Source: Mytilus galloprovincialis (taxonomy: Eukaryota; Mollusca; Bivalvia; Mytilida; Mytilidae). From it: DNA of 64,000 nucleotides. The notes below the pieces were generated by a model. The model worked only from the letters and a program-made list of their open reading frames with translations. It was not told the DNA's origin and searched no databases. A program made the translations under genes and the position numbers. This document shows, piece after piece, positions 5,314 to 51,779 of the stretch (position 1 is its first letter; every line of letters starts with the position of its first letter). The DNA lies in assembly GCF_965363235.1 (NCBI RefSeq), contig NC_134846.1:5337001-5401000 (forward strand), written 5' to 3'.

Positions 5314-5385
5314 GTAAGTGCCTACCTATGTGTCATTCACCAGTAAAAACAAACGCATGATTTACAAATTTTAACCAATATTTAC

Positions 5386-26040: not shown

Positions 26041-26191
26041 TGGGTGTTTTTTTGAGATTTTTTATTGGATAATTTGTAACGAGACAAGCATGCAGACCAA
26101 ATAAACTAGATCCATAACCGTTATGGAATGATTAAATCTTTCATAATGAATTCATTGTACAATTATTGAAGTTGGTCTCATATTTACCACT

Positions 26192-28166: not shown

Positions 28167-28330
28167 CATGAATCGCTTCATTGCATTTGTTCCTGGGAAG
28201 GTCAGAGATGGACCGGAAAATATCACTTATAAATAGTGAGCATAAAACTTCCTGGTTGTATGCATTTCTGATTTAATGGACGACAATAATATTTTGATAT
28301 CTGAATGAGGACTAAACACATGTTTCGATT

Positions 28331-28391
28331 ATGTTTGATGTTTTCTATTGTGTTATTCTTAACACCATTGTATATAGATTTGTAAATGGGG
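28331..28391 (+). CDS. gene B exon 1, signal peptide
   Basis: Identical to 24203-24263 (MFDVFYCVILNTIVYRFVNG). It is the closest intact leader upstream of full exon 2, with a phase-1 donor that fits. Confidence 0.65.
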
Positions 28392-31300
28392 GTAAGTTTA
28401 CAGAATTTCAATATTTACATATACTATATATGTAGGTTAAATCACCAAATATTTTTTTAATGGGATGGTTCATGTGATTGGTAAATATAAAAATGATATC
28501 AAATGGGTTTTATATCAGTTATCTATAGTATGTTTTCATACGGACAATCAATTGTGAACCTTCAAATATTATCTTGAAAAGATTAAATTTAGAAAAAAGA
28601 TATAATAAGAAAATAGATATTTTTATGTAAATAGAATGTCATATCATGTACTTGATACTTGTATACAACATGGATTTTATTTAAATCCGTAATTTTTGGT
28701 TTGTTTCTAAAGTATTACGATCATACCTATACGATAGGAAAAGAGTTATATAAAGAAAAAAAATCTAAATATCAAAGCTATTGTAATCAAAGTTTTAAAT
28801 TTCACAGACGTAGACTAGGAGGTTTCAAATACACGCCCTCGACATTTTCCTGATAAACTTCATAGTATCATCATTATATATATATTTTTAATGGACAAAA
28901 CTCAAAGATTTGTCTACTGTTTCAATTCAAACCACAACATTTGTTTGGTTCTCTTTCGAAGTATACTTTTGTGCAATACATATAAATTGCACAAAAATAT
29001 CTATATATTGTACAAACGTATATTTCGAAAGAGTACCGATTTAATTATTTGTTTTGAATTGAAACAGTAGACAAATCTTTGGGTTTTGTCCATTAAACGA
29101 CCATACGTTCATTTGATTTCTAATAAAAGTATTATTTATAAAGTGCCTTATTTTAACATCTTACCTTTAATTAGTTTACGAACCAAAAAATCGACAATAA
29201 AATATGTAAGTGGTTTTTTTTTCAATACCAACCTCCTTATATATCAATAGTCATGATTTTAAAGTAAAATGACACAATAAACACTTAATTGTCTCTGTTC
29301 GTAAGAAAGTAATAGATGAACCGGAAAAACTCTTGTTACTACATTTCTATATTCAACATCCGTATAATGTATGAAAACATGTGAAACCGGAAGAAATAAC
29401 TTGATCATTATTTGTGGATGACACACATTTCCAAAAATTATTGATGTTTTCTCTACCTTGATTCTTATTATTATTGTATACAGATATTCGAATGGGGGTA
29501 GGTAAACACTACACATATTCTATATTAATCTTATATCTTGTTTTTCTGTTTTGTTTTTCTTAAAGAGATAATACATGTGACAGGTAAACAATACATTGAC
29601 ATCAGTTGGTTTTAGCGTTATTTTAAGCCTGATTTATATGATGAACCTATCTATCTATATAACCTGGTTAGCAATCAAATGATAAGCGTCAGTTATTGTC
29701 CGAAAATGGTCATATTAAAGTAGTAGATGGAATCATAAAATAGATAATGGTATATTAATAAAATGCATAGGAAAATTTAAATGTCCTAGTTCAGATGCCG
29801 TTAAAATTAAACTCAACACCTTTTTAAACAACTTAAATTTTGTTTACTTTCGTAATTCTTTTTTGTTGAAGGTATTTTTGATTCAACCCATAAAATAGAG
29901 AGAGAAAAAATGTAGTAACTGCATAAACGGGTCGTTGCGAGTATGAATGTTTACAATGTGAAACATTCATTGTACACATGCATTATCCAGATTTAGGAAG
30001 GGTCCTTGTTACTTAGTCTTTGGTTTTTTATGTTGTGTCTTGTGTACTATATAATTTATATTATTTGTCTGTCTGTCTTTTAATTTTTAGCCATGGCGTT
30101 GTCAGTTTATTTACGATCAATGACATTGAATGTAACTCTGGTATCTTTTGCCCCTCTTTTGTGAAATATGGGTGTTTTTTTGAGATTTTTTATTGGATAA
30201 TTTGTAACGAGACAAGCATGCAGACCAAATAAACTAGATCCATAACCGTTATGGAATGATTAAATCTTTCATAATGAATTCATTGTACAATTATTGAAGT
30301 TGGTCTCATATTTACCACTAAAGGAGTAGGTCCTCATTAAAAATGCCCCGATTCCAGCTTAAATATGAAAAATCTATCAAATATGCCAAAAAACGTCACT
30401 TTTCAGATGTTTTTTGTCAAGATTGAAAGTGGCCGCATCTGTATATATGTTATGTAATAACATTAAATACGACTTACATTTCAATATTATGAATGAACAC
30501 GAATGCGGCCAATTTCATTTAAGACGAAAACCGTCTAAAATTTAACTAAAATGCTAAAATTGGGAAGATTTCAGTCATTTATCATGACTTAATGATGCTA
30601 GTACCCGATATATGTGCATTGTATAGTCAAAAACAGCCAATATTTATGTAGCAGAAGCATTCTACTTTCCAGTAAATAGAGATTACATGTTCTCAATTTT
30701 GTAAAACTGCTATATTTTGGGGCCAAAAAAGGGTCTTACTGAATCTACTCCTTTAAAATAAAGCTTACCATAGGTACATGTACAGTTTCATCAGTTACAT
30801 TATCTTACCTTACTTTCTGCCACTGACATTGAACCTTGGATGTGAAAAAGCCTTTTCAACAAAAGGGATGCCTGTAATCAGTTTTCCTATTGTCATTTTT
30901 CAATTTTAGTGCATAAATATTCAAAGCAACGGTGAATGAAGTATAACCTTATACAGAGTCTTGAATATCTATTGAGAATGTTGTTCACTATCAAACTTTT
31001 TAACGAAGAGTAGTCATGAAAAAGGCGAGGTTTCCTCGGCGCATTTTAAGGACTCGATTTTGTTTTTTGCCGTTGTTGCATATCATATGATTGACACATA
31101 TATTCTTTTCTTTTTTTTTGTCGTTTGTTATAGTTACAAAGCATGTCAGTTCCTAGTTTGATTTACTGATACAAAGCATATTAGTTATTTATAAATGTTA
31201 TTGGCTCTCAACTAGTTGTCAGTAACATCGAGTATACTCAGAACTGTATCTTTTTGGTTATTGTAAGGGATGTATATGTATGGATACCCTACAATGTCCG

Positions 31301-34300
31301 GTCTGTCTTTTTGTGCTAAATTTTTTATGATGTTGTACTGTTAAGCCACTGTTCGAGATTATATTAGGGTTGATGCCTTTGAAAATGTTAAGCCCTGACA
31401 TATTCTTCATGTTGCCTGTTCGAATTCAGGATCCTGTAGTTCGGTGTTTGTCGTTAGTTCATGGCTATTGTATTTATTTTTCGTAAATAGTTCGTTATAC
31501 ATTTTGTCCTTAGTTACTCGGGTCATATTAAAGCCTATTCTATGGAACGGGTGTTTGTGATTGTTGATTTTGTTAATTGCCTACAATTTCTTAAAAACCA
31601 CTACATTTGAACATGGTAGTTATCTCCTTGTTATTCATACCACATCTCAATGTTTTTTTTATAACAGTTGATTAATATGTAAACATTTGATGGTGATAGA
31701 AATCAATTTTAATTATTACCAAAGCTGTTTTACGTAGTATTATGTTTAACTATATGTTAGACGTGCAGCGCCTTCGAAAATTAAAGTTCCAATGAACTTG
31801 ACATGAACATGTTTTAAATTACTTGAATATCAATATTGTTTCGGAAATGTAAATATCAAACATTCGAGTAAATTTTATTTTGAAGTTAAATAGTTAACGA
31901 CACTATGTCAAAAATGAAACATTAAAATATAGTAGAGTTTATAATAGCATGTGAAAAAAATGATTGCAGTTCAAACATATTCTTAAAATTGTCATTTGGC
32001 ATCGTAGGTGTTTTATATTGTATATTGCCAAATGTTCAATGATATTAGTTTATTAAAAAATTAATAATTTCAATACACATGTACATGACAATACATGGTT
32101 TATTTTCAGATCAACTGAGTCTTGAAGTGAGTGCTGTTCAATCAGAATGGAAAAAATCTTTTGATTCCTGTAGTAATCCTACATACTGGCATCAGATATT
32201 CAATGACTGTCAGCCTGAATCATGCAATGTCTCAAGTGTCGCAGATAAAATTATTAGGAAGCCAACTGTCGGACGGCACCAGTATTGGATCTATGGTTAT
32301 GTACTACGATCACCTGTTATCGTCAATATAGGTATTGTTTACAATTTGTAGGTGTTATGTTAATTTAATGGTTTACAAATGGTTAACTGGTCGAACAGAT
32401 TTTAAATTTGTTTTCTCTTATGTTGTTTTAGTTTAAAAGGAATGTGTCACCATTTATTGCTAATAGCCAACTTGATAAAATTATGATTACAAGCATATCT
32501 GCAATTTAGCAGTATACTACTAACTACAATATCAAATAATATTCAACAATAGGACGATATTTATATTCTATTAAGGTAGTTTGGGAATCTTCCTCTATAT
32601 TCGATTTGATTTCGGTTTTGATTTCGATTTGATGCAATATGCAAATATGAAGAGTAGTTAGTAATTCATGTGTTAATAATTATCAAAGGAACCAGGATTA
32701 TAATTTAATACACCAGAAATGCGTTTCGTAAACTTTTTTGGATTCGAGCGTCACTGATGAGTCTTTTGTAGACGAAACGCGCGTCTGGTGTATAAACAAA
32801 ATTTAGTCCTGGTATCTATGATGAGTTTATTTGCTACCACGTGGTCGATGCCACTGCTGGTGGAGATTTATTTCCCCGAGGGTATCACCAGCCCAGTAGT
32901 CGGCACTTTTGTGCTGACATGAATTATCATTGATATGGCTATATTTATAAATTGACTGTTCTCAAAATTTATAATTTTTTAAATACTAAGGTTTTTCTAC
33001 CTCAGGCATAGATTACCTTAGCTGTATTTGGCAAAACTTTTAGGAATTTTTGTCCTCAATGCTCTTCAACTTCGTACTTTATTAAAGGTACCAGGATTAT
33101 AATTTAATACACCAGAAATGCGTTTCGTAAACTTTTTTGGATTCGAGCGTCAGTGATGAGTCTTTTGTAGACGAAACGCGCGTCTGGCGTATATACAAAA
33201 TTTAGTCCTGGTATCTATGATGAGTTTATTCGTCTACATAAGACTCATCAGTGACGCTTAGATCAAAAAAGTTATAAAGCCAAACAAGTCAATAGTGAGG
33301 CTTTTTATTTTAATAAAGAATGTTTTAGAAATACTTTATTCATGTCATGATTTATGCTCTTTTGTCGATATTTCACACTGAGAATTAGCAAGGTGTTAAT
33401 TGTGGTCAAATATAATGCCTACCCATTTAAAAAGGAGCATAGAGCATGGCATAAATGATTTATATCGGTTCGAATAGGACAAATACAGTATTGTATATGC
33501 CGAAACGTACGAAAGTAACTTCAAACTGTTTGACGGTTCTCGTTTCCTCCCTGTTTGGTTAGTACATTATTGATTGACAAGGAGATTATTATGTACTTAA
33601 TAAGTTTAAAAACTAAAAGGAGGGTAAATATATGTTGTTTTACAATATATAATAAAAGTGTATGCTAAAACGTATAAATGTTTTCGGAGGTTTATCTAGC
33701 TGTACAACACATAATTTGTTTTATTGCCTATACCAAGTCAGAAATATGACAGTGGTTTTTCACTCGTTTGATGGTTGATAATATTATGTCATTTTTATGG
33801 ACTTCACCTTTTTGAATTTAACTAAAAGTTCGACCTTTTTTTTATTGAGCCTTATTAACAAAAATGTGTATCCTTGTTTAGTTTTCTTTATTCGAGGTCA
33901 AGTTTGGATTGAATGAATTATTTGCCACAGATCACAGATCATTATGTTGATATAATTAAATTAGATGTATGATTCATTATAATACGTTACTCTGGTTGGC
34001 TAACTGCAATCTCGCGTTATTCTTCAATCAACTTCATTTCAAAATGAATGTTAACATTCATGTTGACGGAAAAACTTGATAGGAATCGTGTTTTCATGAT
34101 CATAGCGAAAAAATGTAATTATAAGATAAGATAAGATTGGATTTTTAGTTACATAGTGTGCTAGTGACCTAATACGGTATATATGGGGTCAGTAAATTCC
34201 ATATGGGGTAAGAGGAAGGTATTAGAACAGGTCATTCTTCATTAAGTGGCAATAACTTATATATAAAAGCGTACAACGATCTGAGTCTAGTGTAGGTGAT

Positions 34301-37300
34301 ATATTTGAAGTGTTGATATCTTTACATAATGATAAGCTCAAAACCGCTACAATACTATATTGTAGAAAGAAAGATGGAATTGTTTGCATTAAACAAAACA
34401 AAAAGTTTACTTATTGATTAGACTGACCATACTGTACTAATTGTTTTCCATTTGCATGCAACATAGTAAAGGAAAATTACATAATCAAAACCTAAATGAA
34501 CATTTACATTACTATTGTGTAGGACCTTATGCATCTAGGTCAGTTCGATTAAAAGTTTTGAAATGAGCTTTTAAATGACTTATAGTTGGAAGAGGTTTTT
34601 TTACTGTTTCCATATGTTTTGGTCTTAACGAATCTATATCATAAATACAAAATGTTATAATGTAAACATTATAGTGATTCTTTTTTCTTCTGTAAAATCA
34701 AATTACGTAGACTATTTGACCGTTTTAGGCCGTGTTCACACCAAACTCCGTGTAGAGTAAACATGTTTACAATTAGTTTAGTGTAGTGTGCACTGGTTTC
34801 ACATTACATTTGTTCACATCTATACACCTTGTTTAGCTACCTGTACATAAGATTTGTTCTCACTTGTAAAACTATGTGTCATTTAAATGTTCATTACGTA
34901 GAACTGAATTCAAAATTTTGGGACAATTTTTCTAGCGGTAAGGGAACAACCATTTGACTTCAAAAGGGTGGGGGAGGGGGGTGGGGGTGGGAATGGAAAT
35001 ATTCCGATCCCCAATTTGATAAAAAAAAATGATCATACAGATGATAAAAGAAATATTCTGAATCAAAAGGTTTCCCCATACATTATAGTGTTGAATATTG
35101 AAAAAAAAATGTATTTGATCACCAGCATCGAAAAAAAAGGAATAAAAACGTACGCGCGAAAAAAAAATCTTACTCAGATAAAAAAAAAAATAACCCTCCC
35201 CCTTTTTAAGTTAAGTGGTTACTACTTTATGAAAGCCATTTTTATAATTTGCAGTAGTTTGAATATACTAGAGATGTCTCGATTACGCACTAGAAAACGT
35301 TAGCTGCAGCAGCGTGCTTACAGCCGAAAAAAAGGATTGAGTTATTAGGGATCTCTAAATTTTTATCTTTTCTGTTAGTTTCAAATGGTATTTCTTTTCC
35401 AAGGAGTATTTGGTAAAAAATAGGGTCACGTTTTTTTTAATTTATTTTAAGTATTATTTAACGGATCTGAGATACTAGACAAACATATCATTTACCCCAC
35501 ACTTTTTTTAGTCATGCATTTATGCGTGAATCGTTGTTTAAGTAAAGACCAGTGGCAAATATTTCTATGTACGTCAAGTCGATTCGGGAAGACCTTTTCA
35601 AATGAATTAGGCAGCAACTATTTACTTCATTTTTTAGGGAGGGAAAAGGGGGGGTAGAGGGGCGTGGGCTATTGATTTTTCCAGGACAAATTTTGGTGAC
35701 AAGTCGAAATCAATTTTAGCATTATATATATATAGTGGCAGCTGAGGGTGAAACAAACAAATTTTTTTTCAGGGCCAAAAACTGGAAACATTTTTTGTTT
35801 CCAAAACAAAATCCATAGCTCACCACCCACCCCCACCCCCTTGCCTTTATGTTTTATACTCAACTATAATAGCCCCATCCCCATGCCTTTATGTTTTATA
35901 CTCAACTATAATAGCCCCCCCATGCCTTTATGTTTTATACTCAACTATAATAGCCCCCCCCCCCCGAAAATCAATTGGTTCCTGCCTTCTGGGTTCGGCA
36001 ATGATGCTGCTTTGAGTCTTAATCAGGGGTTAATAAAGTACGTGAATTTGTTTTTAACAAAAAAAAATCTGTAAAATTTAGACAACAATTTCTGTAAAGA
36101 ACTATACTAATAATTATCAAAAATATCAATTTTACTCAAAAATAGTTTCCTCCTTAAATATATACACGGTAAAACTAATGTCCTAAATGCCTAGTTTTGT
36201 GTACACTTAACCTACACAAGGCCTACATTGACTATCGACTGTGTGTAGATAAAACATGATTTAAACTACATGTAAACATTGAGTTTTATCAATGGGAACG
36301 CAATTGTGTTTAGTTTACGTGTGAGTTACACTAACACAACACCGAATTTAGGTCAATGTGAACACGGCCTTAGTCAAAGTCTCATATTTAACTCAAAAAT
36401 AGCCTTTGCTTAAAAATGAAATCAAATCAAAATTCGGAAAAAAACAGTACTTCTAATGATTAAAGATAGAGGCGAAAGTACCAAAGGGTAATTCACACTC
36501 ACATGTCGAAAACAACTTAAAAAGCCATTACAAAAAAAAACAAAAAAAACCCGTATACAAACATGACAAAACAATACAAAGAAAATAAAGACAAAGTCAC
36601 ATCGAACAAATCAAACACAGGACGTGATCTCAGGTGCTCAGGAAGGGTAAGCTTATTAGCCAAATTATTTATTCAAGATATAAGCTTAGTTCCTTTTTTG
36701 GTGTTCTATAAATTTATAATGCTAATTTTTGTTCTTTAGGATGTTATAGTTTGAAATCTAGTGTAAAGAATGAATTTCATCGTGGTATGTTTTTATCTGA
36801 GCACAATTCTGCTTTGGAATGTTCACGGGCCTGTCCGAATGCTTTAACAGACTACATCTTTCTAAGGGTGAGGGAAGTAGTAACAAATACGTCTTTATCT
36901 AAGGTTATGATTTTGTACAAATATATTAAGAATGGAAATGGTGAATTTGTCAAAGAGACAACAACGCGATCAAAGAGAAGCTGAAGGCCACTATGTTTCA
37001 ATATTGAATTTTACCTTCATCCATTTTCAATTGCTGCATGAGCATGTCAAATAAATCAAGGCAATAGCAGTGAACCGTTGTTCAAAAGTAATAGTGTTGT
37101 CAGTTTATTTTCGACTTATGAGGTTGAATGTGTCACTGATCGCATCTATTTCACAAAATTGCACGAAAAATATATGTAACAGAATTATCAACTCTAATAA
37201 GAAGGTATTTGTTTTCGCTTAAAACTACTCTGATTTACAATTGTGAAGAAATAAATAAATTGATTAGGGAAAAAAGAAATTCTGATTATTTTTCCTTAAA

Positions 37301-40300: not shown

Positions 40301-43300
40301 TTTTTGCACGTATTTCAGCAAAATATTGTGTTGTATGTTCCGCTGGAAACAAGGGTCAAAAGAAAAACAATGTATATGAAATTTTACTTTATACCGTACC
40401 TTCTTCAATCACAAAATATAAAGATATTTGAAGCGGGTTTATGAACCTTTAATCGACAGAAACCTGTATGATTCTTACCAAGAGCTCTACTTAGTTTAAT
40501 GATTTTGTGATTATTTTAGAAAACCGAATGCCTTTGTATTCCTGAAGTAACATTTTACGGTATGCAGAGCATTTATTCAGAGGAAAATATGAAACCTTGC
40601 ACAATGCGTTGTCCGGGAAACAATGGAGACATATGCGGTGGTGTTTCAACTGTCGAAGGGGTAGAGCTTTACAGCGCCTATAGTATAGTAAACAGTATGC
40701 ATTGACCTTCTTATACACACACAAATGAATAAAATATTTATTAAAGAAATTAAAGATAAAACATGTATTTTCTGAAAATATATTATGACATTTATACCAT
40801 TTTACGTTTAATAAAGCAATATTTGTACATTGTTTAAGTTAACTGTATAATAGATAGAAACCCACTTTTCAGAAAACATTGGACTGTCAAAATATATATT
40901 GACATTTCATTTAAAATATCAGATAAATCTTTAGAAGAAGGCTTATAAAAAAAGAAGATGTGGTATGATTGCCAATGAGACAACTCTTCACAACAGACCA
41001 AAATGACACAGATTTAACAATAGAGGTCACCGTACGGACTTCAACAATGAGAAAAGCCCATACCGCATAATCAGCTATTAAAAGCCCCGAAATGACGATG
41101 TAAAACAATTTAAAAGAGAAAACTAACGGCCTTATTTATATAAAAAAATTTAAAAATCATGCATCTAAGACTAAATTATATAAAACTATATAAGATCATT
41201 GAAAATTATTTTTATTGGTATAAATATTATTTTTGTAATCAGTGAATTAAAAGCAAATTTAATAATACTTGTATATTATATACATATACACATACATAGA
41301 TCTGCAATCTGTCGATACATGTATCTTTGCATTGCACAAAGTCATGTTTTTCTCTGACTGTTTATGACGTCTTTACACTAAATCCATTAGATGTAGGATG
41401 TGAACGGATTGATAATTTAGTCTTAGATGCATGATTTTTATAAGTTGTTAGTGGCTTTGAACTAGCTGTCAGTTAATTGCGAGTACAGATTTGTACCTAG
41501 TGTCTTTTTGTTGTTCGAACGTATTAGTATCCGGCCACGTCCACTTGTATTTTTGTTCATCTGATGAGTTAAGCCTTTTTCAACTCATTTTAATAGTTCG
41601 TTCTTATGTTGTACTGTCATACAACTGTCCAAGGTTAGGGGGAGTGTTGGGATCCCGCTAACATGTTAAACCCAGCCACAATATGTATGTATGTGCCTGT
41701 CCAAAGTCAGGAGCCTGTAATTCATTGGTAATTTAGTTTGTTTATGTGTTACATATTTGTTTTTCTTCATTTTTGTACATAAATAAGGCCGTTAGCTTAT
41801 TACAGTGTTGAATTTTTTTAAAGGGCGATAAGTTTGCCAGGATCATTTCTAAATTACCTTGCTTTAGTTTTATATTTATATATACATAAAGAGAGAGAGT
41901 CACATATGAAACCTTTCTCTAGAATAGGGTTGAAAGTCAGCTGTTTCTGCTCAAATCAAATAATAACTTATTTCACAATAATTAAACAAATCGAAGGTGT
42001 ATCTGAATGATTGGACCAAGTCAAAATCCGGTCTACAACTTATGGAACAAACGGATAGGGATTTATTTTACTTTTTTGATTAACACAAAAGCCTTTTTAT
42101 CACCTCTTAAAATATAAAGTTTAAAGTTAGATTCACCAACTTTCAGGAAAATACATTCATGATAACATAGAATTTCGAAAATTCCTTCCCCAATGAAACG
42201 TCATGAAACAACAAGGAAAATATAATAGACAAGTTGAAGATTCTCGTAAAAATTGTCAAACTGTCGTCGATTAGATTAATGCTGACTATTATACTTCAGT
42301 TACATGAGACGTCAGTATAGAATTCTCTTTAAAACAGAGGGTCGAAAAAAATTGAGACTGTGAGTCATCAGTTTATGAATATAATTTCTGTGGTCATGTC
42401 ATTAAAGTCGATCTCAGCATAGTTAAAAGCCTACATTTTCACAATTATTGGAGTGCAAACGATTCTTTTGATGTTTTAGATAATATCTTAAAGCAAAAGT
42501 ACTTACAACAATGTACAATATGCATTGTTATCGTGAAAACTAAAAGAAAAAAACCTGCTGACACGCTTTTTTTTAATGATGATTTTGTTAAAACATGCTG
42601 TTCGAAATATGTTCATGTAGTTTATGTTTTAGGAAAAACAAGTACCGAACCACAGCTTGAGAATGCTTGTTTATCAGCTTACTGGGACCATAACAGCAGT
42701 AAATATCGATTCGTTAACCAAATTTGTAGTACAAGTATGATGTACATATGCCAAGGTTATAACAAGACAAGTAGGTTGCAAAGTATACTGTTTTAATCAT
42801 ATTTTCCTATGTTCAATAGTTTACCAGGTTTAGAAATTTGATAATACTTAAAGACAATTTTGTATATATCCATATTCAATATTTCTACATTATTTAAAGT
42901 TACCGTTTACTTTGAAAATAAGAATAGGGGTAAAAGTAGTATACGGCTATTCATTAGTCAAAAATCTTTTAAGCAAAAACAAATCCGGGTAACAAACTTA
43001 AATAAAGAAAACAATAGAACAACAAATACACTGAACTGAAACAAAAACAATCGCCAGCACACGCAGGAACTCGGGGGTATTGTCCCTATTTAAAAAAAAT
43101 CTAAGAAAGCAATTTTGATGCATCATAAGAATATTTTGAGACAAAAATGTCTTTCATATGTAAATCCAAAACATTAAAAACTGAATTTGCACGATTATTA
43201 CCAGAAACTAGTTCTCCAATAGAATACTTATATGTTTAAATGAATCTTTTTGGATATATTGCCTTAAGTAGAAATCATAATTGTATCATCACTAAGATGA

Positions 43301-46300
43301 AATCCTTCCATCTTTCATTGTATTTTGTCTATGAAGTTTTTTAAAACATGTATTTGTTTCATCCCGAAACGTTTTTATATGCAATATATTCTAAACCTCA
43401 ATCTATTTTATCCTAGATTTGTTGACATAAAAATATTCAGTCGAAACAAAACATTTGAGGAATTTCATATTGCTACTGTTAAATATGAAATTCAAACAAA
43501 CGTAATGTCATGGTAAAATATGAGGTGATCTAACTTTTTTAATGTTGTATGTATTTCTTGATTGCAAGCAATGCATCTTGTTTATGAATATATGAATATA
43601 TGAAGGTTTAATCCACCATTTGCTACATAAGGATTGCCTCTACCAAATCAGAAATATGACAGTTGTTGTCAATTCGTTTGATGTGTTTGATGTGTTCGAG
43701 CTCTTGATTTTGCATTTGTTCGGATACTTTCCGTTTCGAATTTTCCTCGGAGTTCAGTATTTTTGTGATTTTACATTTAATATACATTTATATGCCTATT
43801 GTTTTTCTTCATTGATTTTTAGGTAAATCATACGTCGCAGACGTCTGTAACAAAGACACTGTATCTTGGTTCGACGCCAGACAACTGTGTTATGAAAAAA
43901 ATTTGAGGCTTTCTAGTACCATTCAAAATTCTTGTCCACCAAATCATTACTGGACTGGGATGCATGTCGTTGAAAGAATAACGTGGGGGAACGGTATGTT
44001 CCTCTTTTTTTAACTACAAGGCAATTATTCAAAATGAACGATTAACTATAAAAATGTATAAGAAAACCTTATTAAAAATATATCCAATATCTTCATTAAA
44101 ATGACGTTTGAAGCTAAAATATTACTTACGAATAGATCTTGCTTGCGGGTCGCACTGGAAGGTTTTTTTTTGTCCTTCCAAACATTTTAACCAGAAGTGT
44201 AGGATGCAAAATGAAAATAGTTGCTTTGCGTCGTCTTTTTGTTTTGTATTATTTAGTTTTACTTTTGCCATATACTTTTCGGTTCTGTTATAAAGGAGCA
44301 CTTTGTACAATGTCAAATAAAAGGTTTATAAAACCTTTAAAGATATCTAGGTACCCTTCGAGGTATAAGTTTTAATTACTATCAGATATATTTACGTTTA
44401 CTAGGGGAAAGACCTTTGATTATACGAGTCCGTATTCAGTGTAGAGCAAAGCTGACAGTGTATTCTATAGTGTAGAAAGCACCAGTTCATTTGCAACCAT
44501 AATAATTCTTTAATTTGTCACATTTAGAAGAAGTTAACTTTTTAATTGCTTGCTTCCAGGAAGCAATTCGCCGACATATTTTCCGTATTCAAAGTGACCT
44601 AAGCGTGACCTTCACTAATATAACGGTGATCGCAATACGCATTGAACTGTCACTGAAATAAACCATTTTCTGATTGTACATGTTATACACGTGATCAATA
44701 TCCATGCTATTTTGTTGAATGTATTTAAGGTGGAATTTGGTAAATTACGGCTTCAAAACACGACAATTAATGAGTTGCCATATTTTCACTTCATAACAGT
44801 CAGAGATAGAAAAAGATGACGATTACACGATATTTTGCGTAAAAAAATAATAAAATGGTGCACAGAAGACTAAGTTTATGATAAAGATACATGCATTGGT
44901 TAAAGAATTGGATAAACATTATTTTTCACCAGTCACTGGTTTCATTTGACTTTAATGCTCAATTATTTGATTGCTTATGCATAAGTTTTTTTTATCTTAA
45001 TTTCTTTAACAATACATAGTGTACAAAAAATTCAAAACATATGCATGATAAGTTTTATCAATACATTTTGATACTATAATTCAGAATATCTATTTAGTTA
45101 CTTTGCCAAGTGATGCATTATGCCTGATGCTAGTAATTGATGGATCTAGGATTAGACTTGAAACTGAAAAGTGCAACAGTAGTTTTTATTCTTTATGCTG
45201 TGAGTAATTATATAATTGTTGTAAACATTTAGCCCGCTTTTATTCGTAACAGTCGAGATAAGATTGCTAATATCAAATACAATTTCGAATGTTAAATACA
45301 TGTATATAAATTGCAAATCAAAACAGGACAATTACACCATGATTCGGGAAAGAAACATCATATCCTTTAACTTATAAGACACATAGAACGATTGATGACA
45401 CCTGAATATAATTTTTGTGGATATAATTTTTCATGGATACTCGTACATTCTTGTACAAACCCAACTACATTCCACACAATGATGAAAAGCTTTTTTGATT
45501 TTGAAGATTAGTCTTTTATGGTTCCAGTGATTTATAACGTTAATGAAGGCAATTTTGTATCCGTCTTTTTATTAAGCTAGCTGTACTCGAATTATGTGAA
45601 AAATACTATTAAGAGACTAATTGAAATAACTCTGTTTTACCTTTACGTTTTTTGCAAACAGGTTATGTGACATTCATAAAAAAAAAATTAAATGGTACTG
45701 GTTGTATAAAAGAGGGACAAAAGATACCAAAGGGACAGTCAAACTCATAAATCTAAAATAAACTGACTACGTCATGGCTAAAAATGAAAAAGACAAACAG
45801 ACAAACAATAGGACACATGACACAACATAGAAAACTAAAGAATAACGTCACTGAAAAGTATAAGGATCTCAATAATAATTTACATAGTTTTGTTCATTTA
45901 AAAATATGTGTTAATTCTACATACACTCACCATTCTCGCTGATTTGTATTCCGACATGAAATGCGCGTTTTTTTTTTATTGATTGTTCTAACTTACTTCA
46001 ATAGATTTTACCGCACATTTTTGTTTTAAATATTTTCGATAGTAATCATGAAGCATTCAGAAATTACAGATGACCTATTAATAGACATTTCTATAGCCAT
46101 TAACTCCTTTCTCTGACGTCAGTCTATTGTTCTAACAGTGGTTTATTTTTTTACAAGAATCCACTTAACCACTAAGTTAACTTAAGATAACTTATAACAA
46201 AACTTTACACTTTTAAATTACGATATTTTATCTTCTCAAAAACGAGTGACAAATGAAAGATTCTAACTCGCGCGTATTTTCGTAAGTTTAGTCTGTAGAC

Positions 46301-49300
46301 TATGTATGCTACCACTAGACCACGAGTGCTGATATAAAATAATATTTAATTAACACCCTTATAGCGTATATCTGTCAATAGATGTCCATAAACTGTTGGG
46401 TTTTTTTGTCTTTTTGTTATCGTATAAAACATATGAAACACTATTGAATCAAGGAATTGTAAATATAACTTATTTAGTACAATTCCTTCATAAATAAACA
46501 TCCATGTACACATTACACTTATAACTTTTAACGTACGAGGCCTTTTCCTTTTCATCGTAGCAAATGCTTACTTTTGGTTTAGTATTATAATGATATCATA
46601 CCATTATTAAGTTTTTCTATGTTTGATTATAGATGGTCAAAATATACATCAATATTTAACTGATTCTTATATGAATAAAGTGTGATAGGCTTCGACTGTA
46701 AAGCTACTTCTTTGACTGTAAAACCAGAAACAAAATCGGCAACTACATATAAAAAATGAAATATAAATACCTCTTAGATTAAAAAAAATGTTTTTGGTAG
46801 AGAAAAACATTACAATAAGAAAAAAATCATTCCGGGTACTAGACTTGAACTTGGCACTGTTAATATTACAATCATTTTTTTTCGGTACCAACAACTAGAC
46901 GATCACGGCTATGAACAGCTAACACGTTTCACTTTAAAATTGACACAATTATATATTGTACATTTGTAACCGGAACAATTCTGCTTGGGTTTTATAATGT
47001 GTACCACAAATAATACTAGTTTATTGACTGATTAAAGATGGATGCCAAATGTAATTACGTTAAAATAATCTAAAAATTATGAAAGAGAACCATTTAATAC
47101 AACATGTATATGTAATTGTTCAATTAAGACAATTATTTGCATGGTATCATAACCAACAGATGTATGGTAAAGTCGTTTTTACTGTTCATTTACAACTTGA
47201 ATGCCCTTAGTCGTTTAGGTATTTATAACAGATTCTTGGTTGACTATTCAGTTACAGCAGTTGCTAAATACTATATGAATAAATAGAAAAAAGGTTTCTA
47301 AATGTTGGTAATTATTTTTTTTTAACTTTTCAAAAAAGATCTAATCAATTGAAATAATTTGTTATGATTAAACATTGAATGAAAGAATTATTTCCGAATA
47401 TAAAATCTGGTATTAAAAAGGGGAGATAACAACATATTTAAGTTAAATTTAACTTATATTAAGTTAAATACAAATGTGAACCGTGTGGATCTAATTATTT
47501 CCAGCTATTAGAGAATGAAACAGACAAAATACAAAATTATTTTCATGAAATTCTGTTGAATTATTGTCAGATCATACAACAGACTAAAGTCGCTCGTTGA
47601 TTATCGTTTACGAATCCACTACTTCTTATCAATTCTCTACTACATATTTATTTTTTTTAATTTTCATTTTTTATTGAAATCTTTACATTTGCTAGTATGG
47701 AAAACATCGAATACACAGGCAAACGTGCCATGCATGATATACGCATGTAGGCTATAACATGCGAAAGTCAGGCTTGAATCATGCGATAATCATGCAAAAT
47801 ATGAAGTATTCGTAAATCGCACAATCTTCACATTCGGTTTTCGTACGTTTTAAACATGCATGTATCGCATATTTTTAACGCATGATTTTCGCACGATTAT
47901 CATGCTTGGTACATTTACTAGTGTACGGTACATTATTCCGGCCTCTTAAATGTTAGCAATATAACATGTAAATATATATTTGTAAGCCAATATTTTAGTT
48001 TGACAAAAGGAATGGTTTTTTTTATCATAAATATGATAATGATTTTACTCTTTATGCTATTTAAACTTTGAGCAGTGTTCGCTCTTTTATTACTTTTGCT
48101 CTTTTACTTTTTGCACACAGATGTGTCACAGCACACGTCTAGTCAACAAGAAAACAGTGAAGCAACAAGCAAACCATCAACTATTACAGCAGGTACGTTT
48201 AGTATGGTAATCTTTCAGCAAGACTTATTTGACCTGCAATTGTACACGGACGTTTTAAGAAAGGTCTGTTATTGATATAGTTCAGTATCAAAGTACAAAC
48301 TACTCCCGACGGAATGTTCTTGATTTAGATTAGATGTTTGCTGTTCCATTTCAATCATTGCGTCTCGTAATTTGTCGGATGATATTCATATTTGCCAGAA
48401 AAAGAAAAACAAACTGCTTTCAAATTCTCAAACATCAGAAGTGCATGACTCAGTTGACTCGTTAAATACTATATATACTAGATTTGTTTTAATTTGAGGT
48501 ATAGCAATATATTATAGAATAATAGTTAATTTTACATGATGTTGATTCTGTTAATTGCACTCATCTGTCTGATACGAAACTTTTTACTCTTAGCGCCTAA
48601 AACGCTTAATACATGTATGTGTTATGTGTATGTTTTTTTTATATAATAATAACATCTTTTAAACTAAACTTTGTATTTGCAAAGCAACAACAGAACCAGA
48701 TTATGTTACTGAACTATTACAGATAAATGTGAAAGCTTTCTTAGTGGAGTTTCCGATGAGTTAACGAGTTTAAGGTTAAAGGACTAAAAAATATATCAGT
48801 GTAAATGACCTATTTGAATAACAAAGGCTTAACGAATTTGCATTATATTTTAAGGTCGTACAACCCTAAGAGGTCCAGTAAACGCAGAGTCTGATTCAGA
48901 TGACGATAAACCAGATTTGAGTAAGTCTTTAATTATGTATCGTTGTACAATGTTTTACGTATGCAACTTTGATGAGAGAGGTTAAGAGAAATACGTGTAC
49001 AATTGTAAAACACCTCAAAATATTTATGAGATAAATAAAAAAGTTGCAATTACGAGAACAGTGGTTAATGATATTTTGTTCATCTTTAATTTCGTACAAA
49101 GTGCACAATTTCTGCATATATAAAAAAGCGACAATTTGCTTTCAAGATACTAATCTTTTCGAAAATTAATTAAATAAAGATTATATCATTTCTGTTGAAA
49201 TTTTATAGTCAGTGTATGTTTGTTTTATCAAATAGTTAGCACAAAATCCGTAGATAGAAAACAATGCTTACGTAAGAAATCATGTAGAATTAATGAACAT

Positions 49301-51779
49301 CAACAGTGAATAATAATTGGTTTTCCATCGGTCACAATTTGTATATTACACCTGTTTATCACTAGAAATTGCCATACACAAGACATGAATAAAATAATGA
49401 AAACATTAATCTAACTGTTTTCAATTTTTTTATTTATCATTTACATCAATATCAATTAAATATAACAGTAATTTGAAAGTGATTTTTAGGATGTAATATT
49501 TCTACTGGTTGACTAAAAAAAAAATCAAACAAAATATTTCAAACAAATGATATGAATTGGTGCAAAATCAAACTGAAATATACTAGACGTAGAATGTTCA
49601 TGGGATGGCCTAGGTTTTTTACAATTATTCTTTCCATATCCTCGTTTTAAACCATGTATCAAATAAATTGTGTATTTTTTGTTTTGACGCAAAAAAAAAG
49701 TTAAACTTTTTCTTTTAGTTCCAATTGTAGCCGGGAGCGTTGGAGGATTTGTAGCACTTGTGATTGTCGTATTTATTGTGTGTATCGTTCAGAGAAGGTA
49801 TGCATTAATGCATTCTATTTCACTAATGATTTCAATCGTAACGATATCATACGTGTATTATTAAAATGATGATACATTGATATGTATTGCCATACATTAT
49901 TGTGAACAATGATTTCATTCGTAACGATCTCATACGTGTATTATCAAAATGAATTACCATACATTACATGTTCCAATTCATCTAGTTTCCTTTAAGATAT
50001 AAGACTTATCATTTTGTACACCAGACGCGCATTTTATATATATAAGACTAATCAGTTCTGATTGAATCCCAACATTCGGATAACATAAAGTTTTATATCA
50101 TACGTGCATTTCATTTGCATAAGACTCATCAGTTATGATCGAATCAAAACGGTCGGAATACCAAAACAAACATGATTTTTAAGAACAGCGGTATACTACT
50201 GTTGCATTTATTAAGAGCATAAAATTCAAAAATTCAAAGACATTATGCCAAATAAGGTTTTTGCCATCTAAAACCTTAAACTTTGCATTTTAAATCATAT
50301 CACCTTTTCCATTTTGTTATTAACGTATTTTGTTCTTAGTCTATATTTAATTTGTTGGATTTTGTGATGTTCAAAGGAAAAATGTAACATGAAAAAGTAA
50401 AAAAAAAACATCGAACTCCGATAGAAATTCAAAACGGAAAGTCCCTTATCGAATGGCAAATTCAAAAGCCCTATCACATCAAATGAATTCAAACTACTGT
50501 CATATCCCTGACATTGTTAATGCATGAACAAAATGGTGGATTAAACCTGGTTTAATAGCTAGCTAAACTTCTCACTAGTATGACCGTCGCATAAAATTCC
50601 ACTATATTGACAACGATGTGTAAACAAAAAACAAACATAATAGGCTAAAATGTCATAAAAGGGTACAGCAATCAACATTGTCTTATAATTTTAATCACTA
50701 TTAACCAAACAACTATGTCAAAGGATATCTCTATTTACTTGTGACACACAACTTCTCAATAAAGGCGCGTTCTGTGTTTCTCTTCGTCTCGGTTAAGTCT
50801 TCATGAATGTACAAAGATTATGCAAATCTCCTTAAACAAGGCATAGAATTGAACGTTCCCATACAGATGTTAAATTAATCATTAAACACAACGGATACAA
50901 CGGATACAACGCGTTTGCAAACTTCAAAGGTATTGTTTCAAGACGGAAGAAGCCCTTTGATTAACATATTTCTATACCTAATTCAATACTAAAGATTTAT
51001 TTCACGAATATATTGAATATAGTTTTATAATTCAAGATTTAATTCCGTTATGGTCTTTTATAATAATATTTTAATAAAATGTAATGGAACATTATAAACT
51101 GGACATGACTTATTCCTAGAAATATCACAATATAATTAAATATAGCATAATATCGCTCATTTTCAAAGAAATTTTTACCGAAAAAACGTATTTTGGAGCA
51201 AAGTATATTCATATCGTTTACTTTTGAACTATTGAAAATATTGATTTTAGCGTTGTATATTTCTTGTTCTTTTGTCGTCGGGTTAGAGTGACTGGATTTG
51301 CTCTGTGAACCACATGTGTTTTCTTATTCGAACCACTTTGTATTAAGCTACTTTTTATTTCAAACAGGAAAAAATCCAACAACAAGCACTTGAATACAGC
51401 TGTTGATGAGGGAGAGCCTGAAACTTACTCAGAACCAATCAAGAATACCGTTGCAGAAGAAAGTAGGAAGTTAGTAGTCGAGAATACCATTCCAGAAGAA
51501 AATACAAAATTAGTAAACGTTACAGAAGAGGGAATTTACAATCATTTGGGAGACTCAGAGAAAATGATTGAGATGAAACCACAAGATTCCTCAATATATG
51601 ATGTAACGGGAGATGATGAATACCACGTGTTTACAGGGAATGGAAAACAACAGATATTAAAAGACGATGATGACCTGTATGATCATGGAGCAGCAAGTGA
51701 TGTTTACAACACATTAAATGACACAGTGACACCAAACAGACCGGAATCAGACACATACAATGTTATCAATGCAAAATGA
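28331..51779 (+). CDS. gene B: CTLD/WSC/CTLD single-pass receptor with tyrosine-rich tail
   Basis: Eleven exons with GT/AG borders sum to 1626 nt, giving about 541 residues with no stop. Approximate order: signal peptide 1-20; CTLD first half 21-94; WSC 95-195 with eight cysteines; CTLD second half 196-241; second CTLD 242-332; Ser/Thr then Asp-rich stalk 333-378; transmembrane helix about 380-402; tail to 541. The tail has seven tyrosines (TYSEP, IYNHL, IYDVT, EYHVF, LYDHG, VYNTL, TYNVI), of which three are Y-x-x-(L/I). This layout fits a surface recognition receptor that is phosphorylated and recruits SH2 proteins; the ligand is unknown, and I see no EPN, QPD or WND sugar motif. The WSC exons interrupt the first CTLD, as in gene A. 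Exon 1 was chosen as the nearest intact leader; 24203 or 13329 could substitute, since all end in phase 1. Confidence 0.75.
28892..29092. mobile_element. TTAA-flanked foldback, unit 2 copy
   Basis: Copy of 24764-24964 made by the tandem duplication, now in intron 1 of gene B. Confidence 0.7.
29437..29497 (+). pseudogene. decayed signal-peptide exon, unit 2
   Basis: Copy of 25309-25369, with no start codon in the homologous frame. Confidence 0.55.
29990..30168 (+). repeat. dispersed repeat tail, unit 2
   Basis: Copy of 25862-26040. Confidence 0.7.
30320..30754. mobile_element. inverted-repeat element, AAAGGAGTAGGT family, copy 3
   Basis: Copy of 26192-26626, carried by the tandem duplication. 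Confidence 0.75.
32110..32331 (+). CDS. gene B exon 2, N-terminal half of first CTLD
   Basis: 222 nt, phase 1 to 1. It encodes SEWKKSFDSC, then NDCQPESCNV and HQYWIYGYVLRSPVIVNIG. The W-x-x-(A/S)-F-x-x-C and Y-W-I-Y-G landmarks match the first half of a CTLD. The right edge of the tandem duplication (32252) lies within it. Confidence 0.7.
32685..32829 (+). repeat. 'gacgaaacgcgcgtctgg' dispersed repeat, copy 1
   Basis: Begins 'aaggaaccaggattataatt' and ends 'tggtatctatgatgagttta'. Near-identical to 33084-33230, with fragments at 15505, 17935, 39280 and 50020. A hallmark Mytilus repeat, by memory. Confidence 0.8.
32836..33080 (+). repeat. dispersed repeat with 'gccactgctggtgga' core
   Basis: Contains 'tgctggtggagatt', 'gagggtatcaccagcccagt' and 'ctcaatgctcttcaacttcg'. 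Related to 57851-58790 and 13430-13640. Confidence 0.65.
33084..33230 (+). repeat. 'gacgaaacgcgcgtctgg' dispersed repeat, copy 2
   Basis: Near-identical to 32685-32829. The pair encloses another repeat, so the two may come from one duplication event. Confidence 0.8.
33231..34727. other. intron 2 sequence with repeat fragments
   Basis: A fragment of the 43600-type repeat lies at 33725-33790. At 34160-34230 there is a phrase 'tatatggggtcagtaaattc' that I recognise from other mussel repeats. Nothing coding is seen. Confidence 0.4.
34728..36369. mobile_element. non-autonomous Harbinger-like element with TTA duplications
   Basis: Both ends read GGCCGTGTTCACA inward (left at 34728, right ending 36369), and TTA flanks both sides (34725-34727 and 36370-36372). 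A 3-bp TTA target and GGCC ends suit the PIF/Harbinger group. The interior holds G- and C-rich runs and a short tandem array but no transposase that I can see. The open frames at 34968-35303 and 35748-36074 are low-complexity. Sits in intron 2 of gene B. Confidence 0.75.
35838..35965 (+). repeat. three tandem units inside the Harbinger-like element
   Basis: The unit 'atgcctttatgttttatact' followed by caactataatagccccc occurs three times with variable C runs. Confidence 0.85.
36470..36650 (-). repeat. dispersed repeat, minus orientation
   Basis: Contains 'gatctcaggtgctcaggaag' and 'taccaaagg', the reverse of the family at 18458 and 54462. Comparable to 45690-45855. Confidence 0.5.
36740..36867 (+). 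CDS. gene B exon 3, first half of WSC domain
   Basis: 128 nt, phase 1 in and phase 0 out (AGG|gtgagg). It encodes G-C-Y-S-L...A-L-E-C-S-R-A-C-P-N-A-L-T-D-Y-I-F-L-R, the first three WSC cysteines. Confidence 0.8.
37582..38859 (-). mobile_element. inverted-repeat element, AAAGGAGTAGGT family, copy 4, interrupted
   Basis: Opposite orientation to copies 1-3. It begins AAAGGAGTAGGTTC at 37582 and ends near 38859 (ggacctacttcttt). The body matches copy 1 but is split by a second element at 37999-38722. Confidence 0.75.
37999..38722. mobile_element. TTAA-flanked element nested in copy 4
   Basis: The ends GGTAGCACAATACAAAGATG and its inverse (catctttgtattgtgctacc) are perfect inverted repeats of at least 20 bp, flanked by TTAA on both sides (37995-37998 and 38723-38726). 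Removing it would rejoin the outer element cleanly. TTAA duplication suggests a piggyBac-like or Kolobok-like non-autonomous element. No coding capacity seen. Confidence 0.85.
39280..39365 (+). repeat. fragment of the 'gacgaaacgcgcg' repeat
   Basis: 'caccaggcttaaaacttaat', 'cgccaga' and 'cagtgacgctcaga' match the 32685 family in diverged form. Confidence 0.55.
39468..39905 (+). repeat. dispersed repeat, same family as 12660-12955
   Basis: Begins 'tgccccacctacgacattag', has a cgtccg-rich run and two internal copies of 'gttaaagtttttgg/agtcaagg', and ends 'tactttggacacattcttg'. The open frame at 39375-39602 is repeat-derived. Confidence 0.75.
40520..40694 (+). CDS. gene B exon 4, second half of WSC domain
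   Basis: 175 nt, phase 0 in and phase 1 out. It encodes T-E-C-L-C-I-P, then K-P-C-T-M-R-C-P-G-N-N-G-D-I-C-G-G and L-Y-S-A-Y-S, a textbook WSC ending. WSC domains occur in polycystin-1, Kremen and fungal wall sensors and are thought to bind carbohydrate. Confidence 0.85.
40945..41130 (-). repeat. dispersed repeat with 'gattgccaatgagacaac' core
   Basis: 'gatgtggtatgattgccaat', 'gaggtcaccgtacgg' and 'aaagcccataccgca' are the inverse of the family at 62115-62240. Well known to me from Mytilus sequence. Confidence 0.75.
41146..41442. repeat. inverted repeat pair in intron 4 of gene B
   Basis: 'aatcatgcatctaagactaa' at about 41155 is answered by 'ttagtcttagatgcatgatt' at about 41417, with the inverse words 'aactaacggccttattta' at 41122 and 'aaataaggccgttag' near 41782 further out. 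The arms suggest an inserted foldback or two insertions in opposite directions. Confidence 0.6.
41430..41830 (+). repeat. dispersed repeat related to 27060-27410
   Basis: Contains 'gaactagctgtcagtt', 'atgttgtactgtcatacaac', 'gtcaggagcctgtaattc' and 'aataaggccgttag'. Diverged from the 27060 copies. Confidence 0.6.
42633..42770 (+). CDS. gene B exon 5, C-terminal half of first CTLD
   Basis: 138 nt, phase 1 to 1. It encodes E-N-A-C-L-S-A-Y-W, then N-Q-I-C-S-T-S-M-M-Y-I-C-Q-G-Y-N-K-T, the usual CTLD ending with two late cysteines, followed by an N-K-T glycosylation site shared with gene A. Confidence 0.75.
43600..43770 (+). repeat. dispersed repeat, inverse of 17165-17370
   Basis: 'gaaggtttaatccaccattt', 'agaaatatgacagttgttgt' and 'tcggagttcagtatttttgt'. 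It lies just before exon 6; its open frame (43620-43826) is not coding. Confidence 0.7.
43823..43993 (+). CDS. gene B exon 6, N-terminal half of second CTLD
   Basis: 171 nt, phase 1 to 1. It encodes A-D-V-C, S-W-F-D-A-R-Q-L-C-Y, then H-Y-W-T-G-M and I-T-W-G-N-G, the CTLD W-x-x-A-x-x-x-C and W-x-G landmarks. Confidence 0.8.
45098..45199 (+). CDS. gene B exon 7, C-terminal half of second CTLD
   Basis: 102 nt, phase 1 to 1. It encodes L-P-S-D-A-L-C, then R-L-E-T-E-K-C and Y-S-L-C. R-L-E-T-E-K-C is identical in gene A. Confidence 0.8.
45690..45855 (-). repeat. dispersed repeat, minus orientation of the 11105/54462 tail
   Basis: 'agataccaaagggacagtca', 'aactcataaatc' and 'acacatgacacaacatagaa' are the inverse of the 'gactgtccctctggtatctt' and 'ttgtgt' tail sequence. 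Confidence 0.7.
46258..46332 (-). repeat. tRNA-like (SINE head or tRNA pseudogene)
   Basis: On the minus strand it reads gcactcgtggtctagtggta (box A-like, as in Glu/Gly tRNAs), then a spacer and gcgagttagaatc (weak box B). The acceptor stem does not pair well, so it is not a working tRNA gene. Confidence 0.45.
46831..46911 (-). repeat. tRNA-like (SINE head or tRNA pseudogene), His/Asp type
   Basis: On the minus strand, agccgtgatcgtctagttgt is very close to the 5' half of a tRNA-His or tRNA-Asp. The second half holds 'agttcaagtctagtacccgg', a decayed box B. The stems are imperfect. Confidence 0.5.
46912..48120. other. intron 7 of gene B, 3' part
   Basis: AT-rich. At 47695-47930 the words catgc/gcatg and tcgcac recur many times with partial dyad symmetry. 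No gene seen. Confidence 0.45.
48121..48192 (+). CDS. gene B exon 8, Ser/Thr stalk
   Basis: 72 nt, phase 1 to 1. It encodes VSQHTSSQQENSEATSKPST then I-T-A: a Ser/Thr/Gln-rich, probably O-glycosylated spacer between the second CTLD and the membrane. Confidence 0.7.
48855..48920 (+). CDS. gene B exon 9, acidic stalk
   Basis: 66 nt, phase 1 to 1, after tttaag. It encodes G-R-T-T-L-R-G-P-V-N-A-E-S-D-S-D-D-D-K-P. Including it keeps the whole model in frame; so would skipping it, so it could be an optional exon. Confidence 0.6.
49719..49797 (+). CDS. gene B exon 10, transmembrane helix
   Basis: 79 nt, phase 1 in and phase 2 out. It encodes VPIVAGSVGGFVALVIVVF then IVCIVQRR: one membrane helix with a basic end facing the cytoplasm. 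The first nine residues are identical to gene A. Confidence 0.85.
49825..49985 (+). repeat. two tandem copies of an 83-bp unit
   Basis: 'aatgatttcaatcgtaacga' at 49825 recurs as 'aatgatttcattcgtaacga' at 49908, and both continue through atcatacgtgtatta/ctcatacgtgtatta. Confidence 0.8.
50020..50160 (+). repeat. two diverged units of the 'cagacgcgca...actcatcag' repeat
   Basis: 'caccagacgcgcattt', 'ataagacta' and 'aatcag' are followed by a second unit with 'cataagactcatcagt'. Same family as 32685. Confidence 0.6.
50390..50560 (-). repeat. dispersed repeat, same orientation as 17165-17370
   Basis: 'attcaaaacggaaagtccct', 'gaatggcaaattcaaaagc' and 'aaatggtggattaaacctgg'. Confidence 0.7.
51368..51779 (+). 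CDS. gene B exon 11, cytoplasmic tail and stop
   Basis: 412 nt from a phase-2 entry to TGA at 51777-51779. Seven tyrosines lie in acidic surroundings: TYSEP, GIYNHLGD, SSIYDVTGDDEYHVF, DLYDHG, SDVYNTLND and DTYNVINAK. YNTL and YNVI are 13 residues apart, slightly wider than a classical ITAM; no strict ITIM is present. Compared with gene A there is an extra copy of an N-T-(V/I)-x-E-E-x-x-K-L-V motif near the start of the tail. The tail is far better conserved between the paralogues than the ectodomain. Confidence 0.85.

What the first reader, a model, noticed from the sequence alone, without database searches (positions are those of the whole stretch)
28331..51779. WSC domain encoded between the two halves of a C-type-lectin-like domain
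In gene B the exon with the first CTLD half (W-x-x-S-F-x-x-C ... YWIYG) is followed by two WSC exons with all eight cysteines, and only then by an exon with a CTLD ending (C...C....YIC). A second, uninterrupted CTLD follows. WSC and CTLD occur side by side in polycystin-1, but a nested arrangement is not one I know. Unless the first half is a separate small domain, this is a domain-in-domain receptor.
Basis: partly seen in the sequence, partly recalled or inferred. Interest (0 to 1): 0.75.

Follow-up and report, generated by a model that had tools for sequence, protein, structure and literature searches.

The report
Sugar-binding domain nested inside lectin domain
A small mollusc-like receptor gene family on one chromosome appears to carry a complete WSC (probably sugar-binding) domain inside the variable loop of a lectin-like domain, an arrangement repeated in several gene copies and apparently absent from one, which suggests the lectin fold can serve as a socket for whole extra domains.

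Summary
Gene B (28331-51779) has ten consistent exons coding 519 residues: signal, CTLD-like N-half, WSC in two exons (eight Cys), CTLD-like C-half, a second CTLD in two exons, stalk, transmembrane, tyrosine-rich tail. The same order recurs in 6 of the 7 copies whose downstream DNA I read, 27-59% identical to B. Gene E has the same N-half followed by a C-half of the kind that completes the second CTLD, with no WSC exon seen between: a natural uninterrupted version. In 12 of 12 N-half exons the exon ends 15 residues after the Trp of the WIGL-like motif; in the second CTLD 14-15 after, same phase. So WSC sits where the CTLD long loop begins. Both halves show purifying selection in the B/D pair.

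Weak point: exon 2 is not recognised as CTLD by Pfam, and its profile match is marginal. The spliced protein was not folded here and no transcript was available. I judge nesting likely (about 0.65): a new variant of known lectin receptors.

The parts
28331..28391 (+). gene B exon 1, signal-like peptide MFDVFYCVILNTIVYRFVNG, phase 0/1 (identical copy at 24203-24263)
   Evidence: duplicate copy
32110..32331 (+). gene B exon 2, N-half of first CTLD-like domain, phase 1/1, ends 15 residues after Trp of YWIYG
   Evidence: 13 other places with related sequence on the same chromosome, one of them the truncated duplicate of this exon
36740..36867 (+). gene B exon 3, WSC first part (3 Cys), phase 1/0
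40520..40694 (+). gene B exon 4, WSC second part (5 Cys, CGG motif), phase 0/1
42633..42770 (+). gene B exon 5, C-half of first CTLD-like domain (C...C...YIC), phase 1/1
   Evidence: profile match to canonical CTLD ends over 16 columns, 0 of 200 shuffles as good
43823..43993 (+). gene B exon 6, N-half of second CTLD, phase 1/1
45098..45199 (+). gene B exon 7, C-half of second CTLD, phase 1/1, donor GTGAGT
48121..48192 (+). gene B exon 8, Ser/Thr-rich stalk, phase 1/1
   Evidence: no second copy seen in the window, not searched in the other copies
49719..49797 (+). gene B exon 9, transmembrane helix, phase 1/2
   Evidence: 85% identical in gene D
51368..51779 (+). gene B exon 10, cytoplasmic tail with seven Tyr (YNHL, YNTL, YNVI among them) and stop
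974..12078 (+). gene A, paralogue with the same exon order (exons 974-1034, 2100-2321, 2825-2952, 3315-3492, 3918-4055, 5134-5313, 6381-6482, TM 9872-9950, tail from 11717); in-frame TAG in WSC exon near 2935 and frame change in the tail exon; stalk exon not found
23994..32249 (+). tandem duplication, unit 4128 bp, near 100% identical, carrying exon 1 and a truncated exon 2

Best explanation
Gene B codes a type I membrane receptor with two CTLD-like domains, a stalk, one transmembrane helix and a tyrosine-rich tail. In the first CTLD a whole WSC domain is inserted after the WIGL-like strand, where the long loop region of a CTLD starts; exon 5 returns the chain to the CTLD core. The likely origin is exon shuffling: a WSC cassette of two exons with outer phase 1 entered the phase-1 intron that splits the CTLD at that point (order and phases shown; the event is inferred). 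The likely work is recognition: WSC takes the place of the ligand-binding loop and presents its own binding face on the CTLD scaffold, and ligand clustering leads to phosphorylation of tail tyrosines (inferred, not shown). Because exons 3+4 together are symmetric, skipping both keeps frame, so forms with and without WSC are possible (inferred).
For: Exon borders and phases. Same order in A, B, C, D, F, G, 6 of 7 copies read. Gene E: e2 is followed after 4 kb by an e7-type C-half; profiles of e3-e6 match nothing better than E 0.1 in the 50 kb read; no phase 1/1 exon of 60-260 nt with 3 or more Cys and no WSCa-shaped exon lies between, and the one WSCb-shaped open frame is unlike WSC. As control the same scan finds the WSC exons of A, B, D, F, G (A's first cut short by its stop) and exon 5 of A, B, D, F, not of G. 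A transmembrane-like exon with the phases of B's lies downstream of E. The exon ends 15 residues after the motif Trp, followed by G|GTA, in 12 of 12 e2 exons, 14 in 4 of 6 and 15 in 2 of 6 e6 exons. Second CTLD: CD94 over nearly its whole length at E=0.0024, the 8 listed PDB hits are all named C-type lectin-type proteins; 0 of 200 shuffles as good against nine canonical CTLDs of the same genome. e5 against the same: 0 of 200. Cys: e2 odd in 10 of 12, e5 three in 6 of 6, WSC eight in 5 of 5. pN below pS in B/D for e2, WSC, e5, e6+e7 and tail, one-sided P 0.0018, 1.8e-5, 0.02, 0.046, 4.9e-5, not corrected for number of tests. WSC strands 1 and 5 are neighbours (PMC9024836, passages), and the CTLD long loop has been suggested to be an independently evolving part (PMC7618208, passages); both fit an insertion.
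Against: No Pfam CTLD hit for the joined first domain in any of 7 members (one search has border errors in three rows) nor for 5 single e2 exons. PDB hits of the joined profile are not significant (best E 0.2). Joined halves without gene E: against canonical CTLDs 1 of 200 shuffles as good, 18 columns, at the end of e5 in the alignment printed (uncorrected rows); against the second CTLD 5 of 200, 26 columns, all in the N-half. Reversing the halves gives the same or a slightly higher local score. Twelve e2 exons against the second CTLD: 10 of 200. Even in the second CTLD the match to canonical CTLDs covers 37 columns of its N-half and e7 alone matches nothing. e5 shows no constraint in A/B (ratio 1.08), F/D (1.24) or clearly in C/D (0.61, P=0.16); C/D e6+e7 0.97. 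Two e2 exons (I, K) have an even Cys number. Gene G's e5 has a poor polypyrimidine tract and is missed by the stricter scan. No transmembrane or tail exon of C and no tail of E was found. Exon 2 alone gave a meaningless fold, mean pLDDT 40.7 with two sequences. No transcript was seen.
Confidence: 0.65

Rival explanations
1. Exon 2 is a separate small Cys domain or an N-terminal cap of the WSC, not half of a CTLD; exon 5 is a leftover or a linker domain. The receptor is then a plain chain of modules.
For: Exon 2 has no CTLD hit in Pfam; its strongest conserved stretch, around W-I-x-G-Y-V-x-R-S-P-V, lies right before the WSC; profile support for CTLD is marginal.
Against: Gene E keeps exon 2 without any seen WSC and has a CTLD C-half next; exon-end distance and phase are like those of the second CTLD; odd Cys numbers in both halves in most copies; e5 matches CTLD ends.
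Confidence: 0.2
2. The WSC exons are an alternative cassette: the main product joins exon 2 directly to exon 5 (or to exon 7, as in gene E) and the nested form is minor or absent.
For: Exons 3+4 together are symmetric, outer phase 1 on both sides; gene E lacks seen WSC exons.
Against: WSC exons have pN below pS in B/D, F/D and C/D with all eight Cys kept in 5 of 5 copies, and are present in 6 of 7 copies read; they are thus probably used in some product.
Confidence: 0.1
3. The exons do not form one working gene: decayed copies or exons of different genes lie side by side by tandem duplication.
For: Genes A and C each carry breaks; no transmembrane or tail exon of C was found; the window has a fresh 4128-bp duplication.
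Against: In B every exon used is open with proper splice sites and phases; in D exons e2-e7, transmembrane and tail are open (its signal exon was not found and its stalk not searched); B/D show pN below pS in every exon group; order is kept in the distant copies F and G.
Confidence: 0.05

Closest known systems
Group V C-type lectin-like receptors (CD94/KLRD1, KLRB1, NKG2D)
   Same: second CTLD best matches CD94 (E=0.0024); CTLD-like heads on a single-pass membrane protein; no EPN, QPD or WND motif in the exons compared
   Different: here type I with signal-like peptide, two CTLDs, a WSC within the first, long tail; vertebrate group V are type II with one CTLD (recalled)
Polycystin-1 and its relatives (WSC and CTLD in one chain)
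   Same: WSC and CTLD in one protein
   Different: there WSC and CTLD are separate successive domains (recalled); here WSC lies between CTLD halves; no LRR, PKD or channel part
Bivalve-specific CTLD-containing proteins with WSC and other extra domains (PMC10140915)
   Same: the paper's discussion names WSC among the extra domains of bivalve CTLD proteins (passages read)
   Different: no nested arrangement is described in the passages that I saw; no word beginning with insert occurs in the main text; figures and supplements not seen
Kremen / yeast Wsc1 WSC domain (PF01822)
   Same: eight Cys, CGG motif, Pfam hit
   Different: solved Wsc1 only a chance-level hit by sequence (E 2.5); host context differs
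CTLDs with an intron after the WIGL motif (antifreeze-protein-like, same positions in groups VII and XII; PMC514892 passages)
   Same: intron downstream of WIGL
   Different: no domain inserted there in what I read

Membership tests
WSC domain (PF01822) | profile score over Pfam cut-off | tested here: met
   32.8 bits whole protein, 36.2 bits exons 3+4, cut-off 27.8; gene D 32.4 bits
WSC domain (PF01822) | eight conserved Cys and CGG motif | tested here: met
   invariant in 5 of 5 aligned copies; features as in PMC9024836 passages
C-type lectin-like domain, second (exons 6+7) | profile similarity to known CTLDs | tested here: met
   CD94 alignment over positions 10-90 of 91, E=0.0024; 0 of 200 shuffles as good against canonical CTLDs, in the N-half; Pfam Lectin_C always below cut-off: 3 of 6 members (one row with a wrong border), 3 of 4 given, none for gene B
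C-type lectin-like domain, first (exons 2+5) | profile similarity to known CTLDs | tested here: inconclusive
   no Pfam CTLD hit; PDB E 0.2 at best; 1 of 200 shuffles as good against canonical CTLDs
C-type lectin-like domain, first (exons 2+5) | Trp and Cys of helix 1, WIGL-like motif, two Cys then terminal Cys | tested here: met
   W14, C21, W60, I61, G63, C87, C106, C114 invariant in 6 of 6 rows; which features define the fold is partly recalled, WIGL motif in PMC7618208. In e2 exons K, M, N the Trp of helix 1 is missing
C-type lectin-like domain, first (exons 2+5) | double-loop fold | not testable with these tools
Canonical Ca-dependent C-type lectin | EPN/QPD and WND motifs | tested here: not met
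   absent from gene B and from the e2, e5, e6, e7 sequences of the other copies
ITAM receptor | YxxI/L, 6-12 residues, YxxI/L | tested here: not met
   no match in the tail; YNTL and YNVI are 13 residues apart
Polycystin-1 family | PKD repeats, multi-pass channel part | tested here: not met
   519-residue protein with one transmembrane exon in the model, no such Pfam hit

The most novel reading that the evidence does not exclude
The start of the CTLD long loop is used in this family as a socket: whole folded domains can be plugged in through a phase-1 intron. WSC is plugged into the first CTLD of most members read, gene E has an empty socket, and the second CTLD has a very short loop. Since the plug is a symmetric exon pair, one gene could make lectin heads with and without WSC.
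Probability: 0.4. Interest if true: 0.78.

Novelty: new variant of a known kind. Interest (0 to 1): 0.62.

Why it matters
CTLDs vary mainly in the long loop; replacing that loop with a second complete recognition domain would be a large step in how invertebrates diversify receptors, and it gives a natural test of how much insertion the fold tolerates. My ten searches of the held library (mostly seen as listings, passages read from five papers) brought up no description of it; the library covers open-licence papers only.

Tried and rejected
Pfam on single exons and joined halves: no CTLD hit for exon 2 or 2+5. PDB with a single joined sequence: chance only. PDB with the joined profile: not significant. 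Structure of exon 2 alone (two rows): meaningless, pLDDT 40.7. Natural against reversed order of halves: no gain in local score, so order itself is not supported by profiles. Including gene E raises the match to the second CTLD to E 0.0017 over 80 columns (0.0024 over 82 columns), but E holds an e7-type exon, so this is partly by construction and I do not count it. Literature: no paper found on the nested form; PMC4581086 (passages) only lists a WSC protein among mussel gill transcripts. WSC arrays elsewhere looked at and left: the unit printed holds stops and only fragments of possible halves. An exon 7 end with donor GTAATT was first used and replaced by GTGAGT, which restores phase 1.

Full report
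WHAT IS THERE. Window GC is about 31%. Gene B has ten exons with GT/AG borders coding 519 residues: signal-like peptide, exon 2, two WSC exons, exon 5, exons 6 and 7, a stalk, a transmembrane helix and a tail with seven Tyr. The borders inside the extracellular part are phase 1 except the one within WSC (phase 0).

IT IS A FAMILY. Sequences related to exon 2 occur at 14 places, all on this chromosome, with E of 0.001 or better in at least one of three searches; one is the truncated duplicate within the window. Four hits on other chromosomes had E of 0.038 or worse and were not counted. I read the DNA downstream of seven: A, B, C, D, E, F, G. Six of seven have exon 2, WSC first part, WSC second part, exon 5, exon 6, exon 7 in this order. 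The joined first-domain halves are 27% to 53% identical to B in A, D, F and G, the second domain 28% to 59% in A, C, D, F and G, the WSC 27% to 56% in C, D, F and G. Six further exon 2 places were read only at the exon itself. Exon 5 of F and G and the first WSC exon of G were found by splice-site scan or weak profile match rather than by strong similarity.

THE UNINTERRUPTED COPY. Gene E has a signal-like exon (55% identical, E 0.03), an exon 2 59% identical to that of B, and then an exon that resembles exon 7 (50%), the C-half of the second CTLD. Between them lie 4 kb; profiles of exons 3 to 6 match nothing better than E 0.1 in the 50 kb read. No possible phase 1/1 exon of 60-260 nt with three Cys and no WSCa-shaped exon lies there; one open frame of WSCb shape has an unrelated sequence. 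The same scan recovers the WSC exons of A, B, D, F and G (A's first cut short by its stop) and exon 5 of A, B, D and F but misses exon 5 of G, so it is not perfect. A transmembrane-like exon with the same phases as in B follows; no tail like that of B was found. In B exon 7 is completed by exon 6, which is a CTLD N-half. In E exon 2 stands in that place. This is the best evidence that exon 2 is a CTLD N-half. E could be the older form or a deletion; I cannot tell.

POSITION OF THE INSERT. In 12 of 12 readable exon 2 sequences (gene C left out for its frame break) the exon ends 15 residues after the Trp of the W-x-x-G-like motif, followed by G|GTA; in exon 6 it ends 14 residues after in 4 of 6 and 15 in 2 of 6, in the same phase. 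A CTLD intron downstream of WIGL is known in fish antifreeze-like lectins (PMC514892, passages). In canonical CTLDs of this genome the long loop begins soon after this point (alignment; which residues bound the loop is recalled). The long loop is described as variable and has been suggested to be an independent part for adaptation (PMC7618208, passages). WSC has the sheet order 1-5-3-4-2, so first and last strands are neighbours (PMC9024836, passages); that its ends therefore lie close is my inference.

HOW GOOD IS THE CTLD CLAIM. Exons 6+7: CD94 is the best PDB match, nearly full length, E=0.0024, and the eight listed hits are all C-type lectin-type proteins by name; against nine canonical CTLDs of the same genome no shuffle of 200 scored as high (29.0 against at most 27.2), with 37 columns aligned, in the N-half; exon 7 alone matches nothing. 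Exon 5 alone: 0 of 200 shuffles as good, 16 columns. Exons 2+5 joined: 1 of 200 as good against canonical CTLDs, 18 columns, in exon 5 in the printed alignment; against the second CTLD 5 of 200, with the match in exon 2 only (26 columns); twelve exon 2 sequences alone 10 of 200; reversed order scores the same or slightly higher. The PDB profile search gave five hits with E 0.2 or worse, four of them C-type lectin proteins. Pfam gave no CTLD. So exon 5 is fairly well supported, exon 2 only by position, Cys and Trp pattern and gene E.

CYSTEINES. Exon 2 has three Cys in 9 of 12, five in one and four in two copies; exon 5 three in 6 of 6; exon 6 three in 6 of 6 and exon 7 three in 7 of 7; WSC first part three in 5 of 5 and second part five in 6 of 6. 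Odd numbers in both halves fit bonds across the insert. Bonds were not observed.

IS IT USED. B is open from signal to stop. In D exons 2-7, transmembrane and tail are open; its signal exon was not found and its stalk not searched. Between B and D pN is below pS for exon 2 (P=0.0018), WSC (1.8e-5), exon 5 (0.02), exons 6+7 (0.046) and tail (4.9e-5), one-sided and uncorrected; exon 5 alone shows no constraint in A/B and F/D (ratios 1.08 and 1.24), and in C/D only WSC does (P=0.017; exon 5 P=0.16, exons 6+7 ratio 0.97). A and C are broken, and no transmembrane or tail exon of C was found.

FUNCTION. Inferred: a recognition receptor with a CTLD-WSC head and a CTLD, signalling by tail tyrosines. 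The tail has YNHL, YNTL and YNVI but no standard ITAM or ITIM. WSC is called carbohydrate-binding in the bivalve lectin paper (PMC10140915, passages); the Wsc1 paper cites such a role but sees no apparent ligand pocket in Wsc1. The exons carry no EPN, QPD or WND motif, so Ca-dependent sugar binding by the CTLDs is unlikely.

NOVELTY. WSC together with CTLD is known, also in bivalves. Nesting was not described in the passages or listings seen. Ten library searches (one search listed 15 of 22 papers) brought up none; this covers only open-licence papers. I call it a new variant of a known kind.

Noticed in passing
23994-28121 and 28122-32249: Head-to-tail duplication of 4128 bp at near 100% identity with its break inside exon 2; very recent or an assembly effect.
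   Followed up: partly
25309-25368, 29437-29496, 13347-13391: Further signal-exon-like sequences, followed by GTAGGT or GTAAGT; possible alternative first exons.
   Followed up: no
974-12078: Gene A, same family, with a TAG in the first WSC exon and a frame change in the tail exon.
   Followed up: partly
8452-8894, 26206-26626, 30334-30754, inverted 37580-37956: Interspersed repeat of about 440 bp; stretches of the direct copies 87-92% identical, the inverted one 71-91%.
   Followed up: no
57847-58787: Cluster of short tandem-like repeats.
   Followed up: no
L005-L008 (C5:70.90-70.92 Mb and C9:90.97 Mb): Tandem units of about 3 kb with two WSC exons, preceded by a fragment like a CTLD first helix (F-x-L-A-K-T-M-C) and, in L007, followed by N-E-L-K-Y-I-C-K; stops interrupt the halves; the nested layout may be wider than this family.
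   Followed up: partly
G000 C3:78.2-78.6 Mb, C5:82.09-82.19 Mb, C13:67.1-67.6 Mb: Large clusters of WSC exons in this genome; 129 WSC matches in all, a lower bound since 150 of 370 candidates were scored.
   Followed up: no
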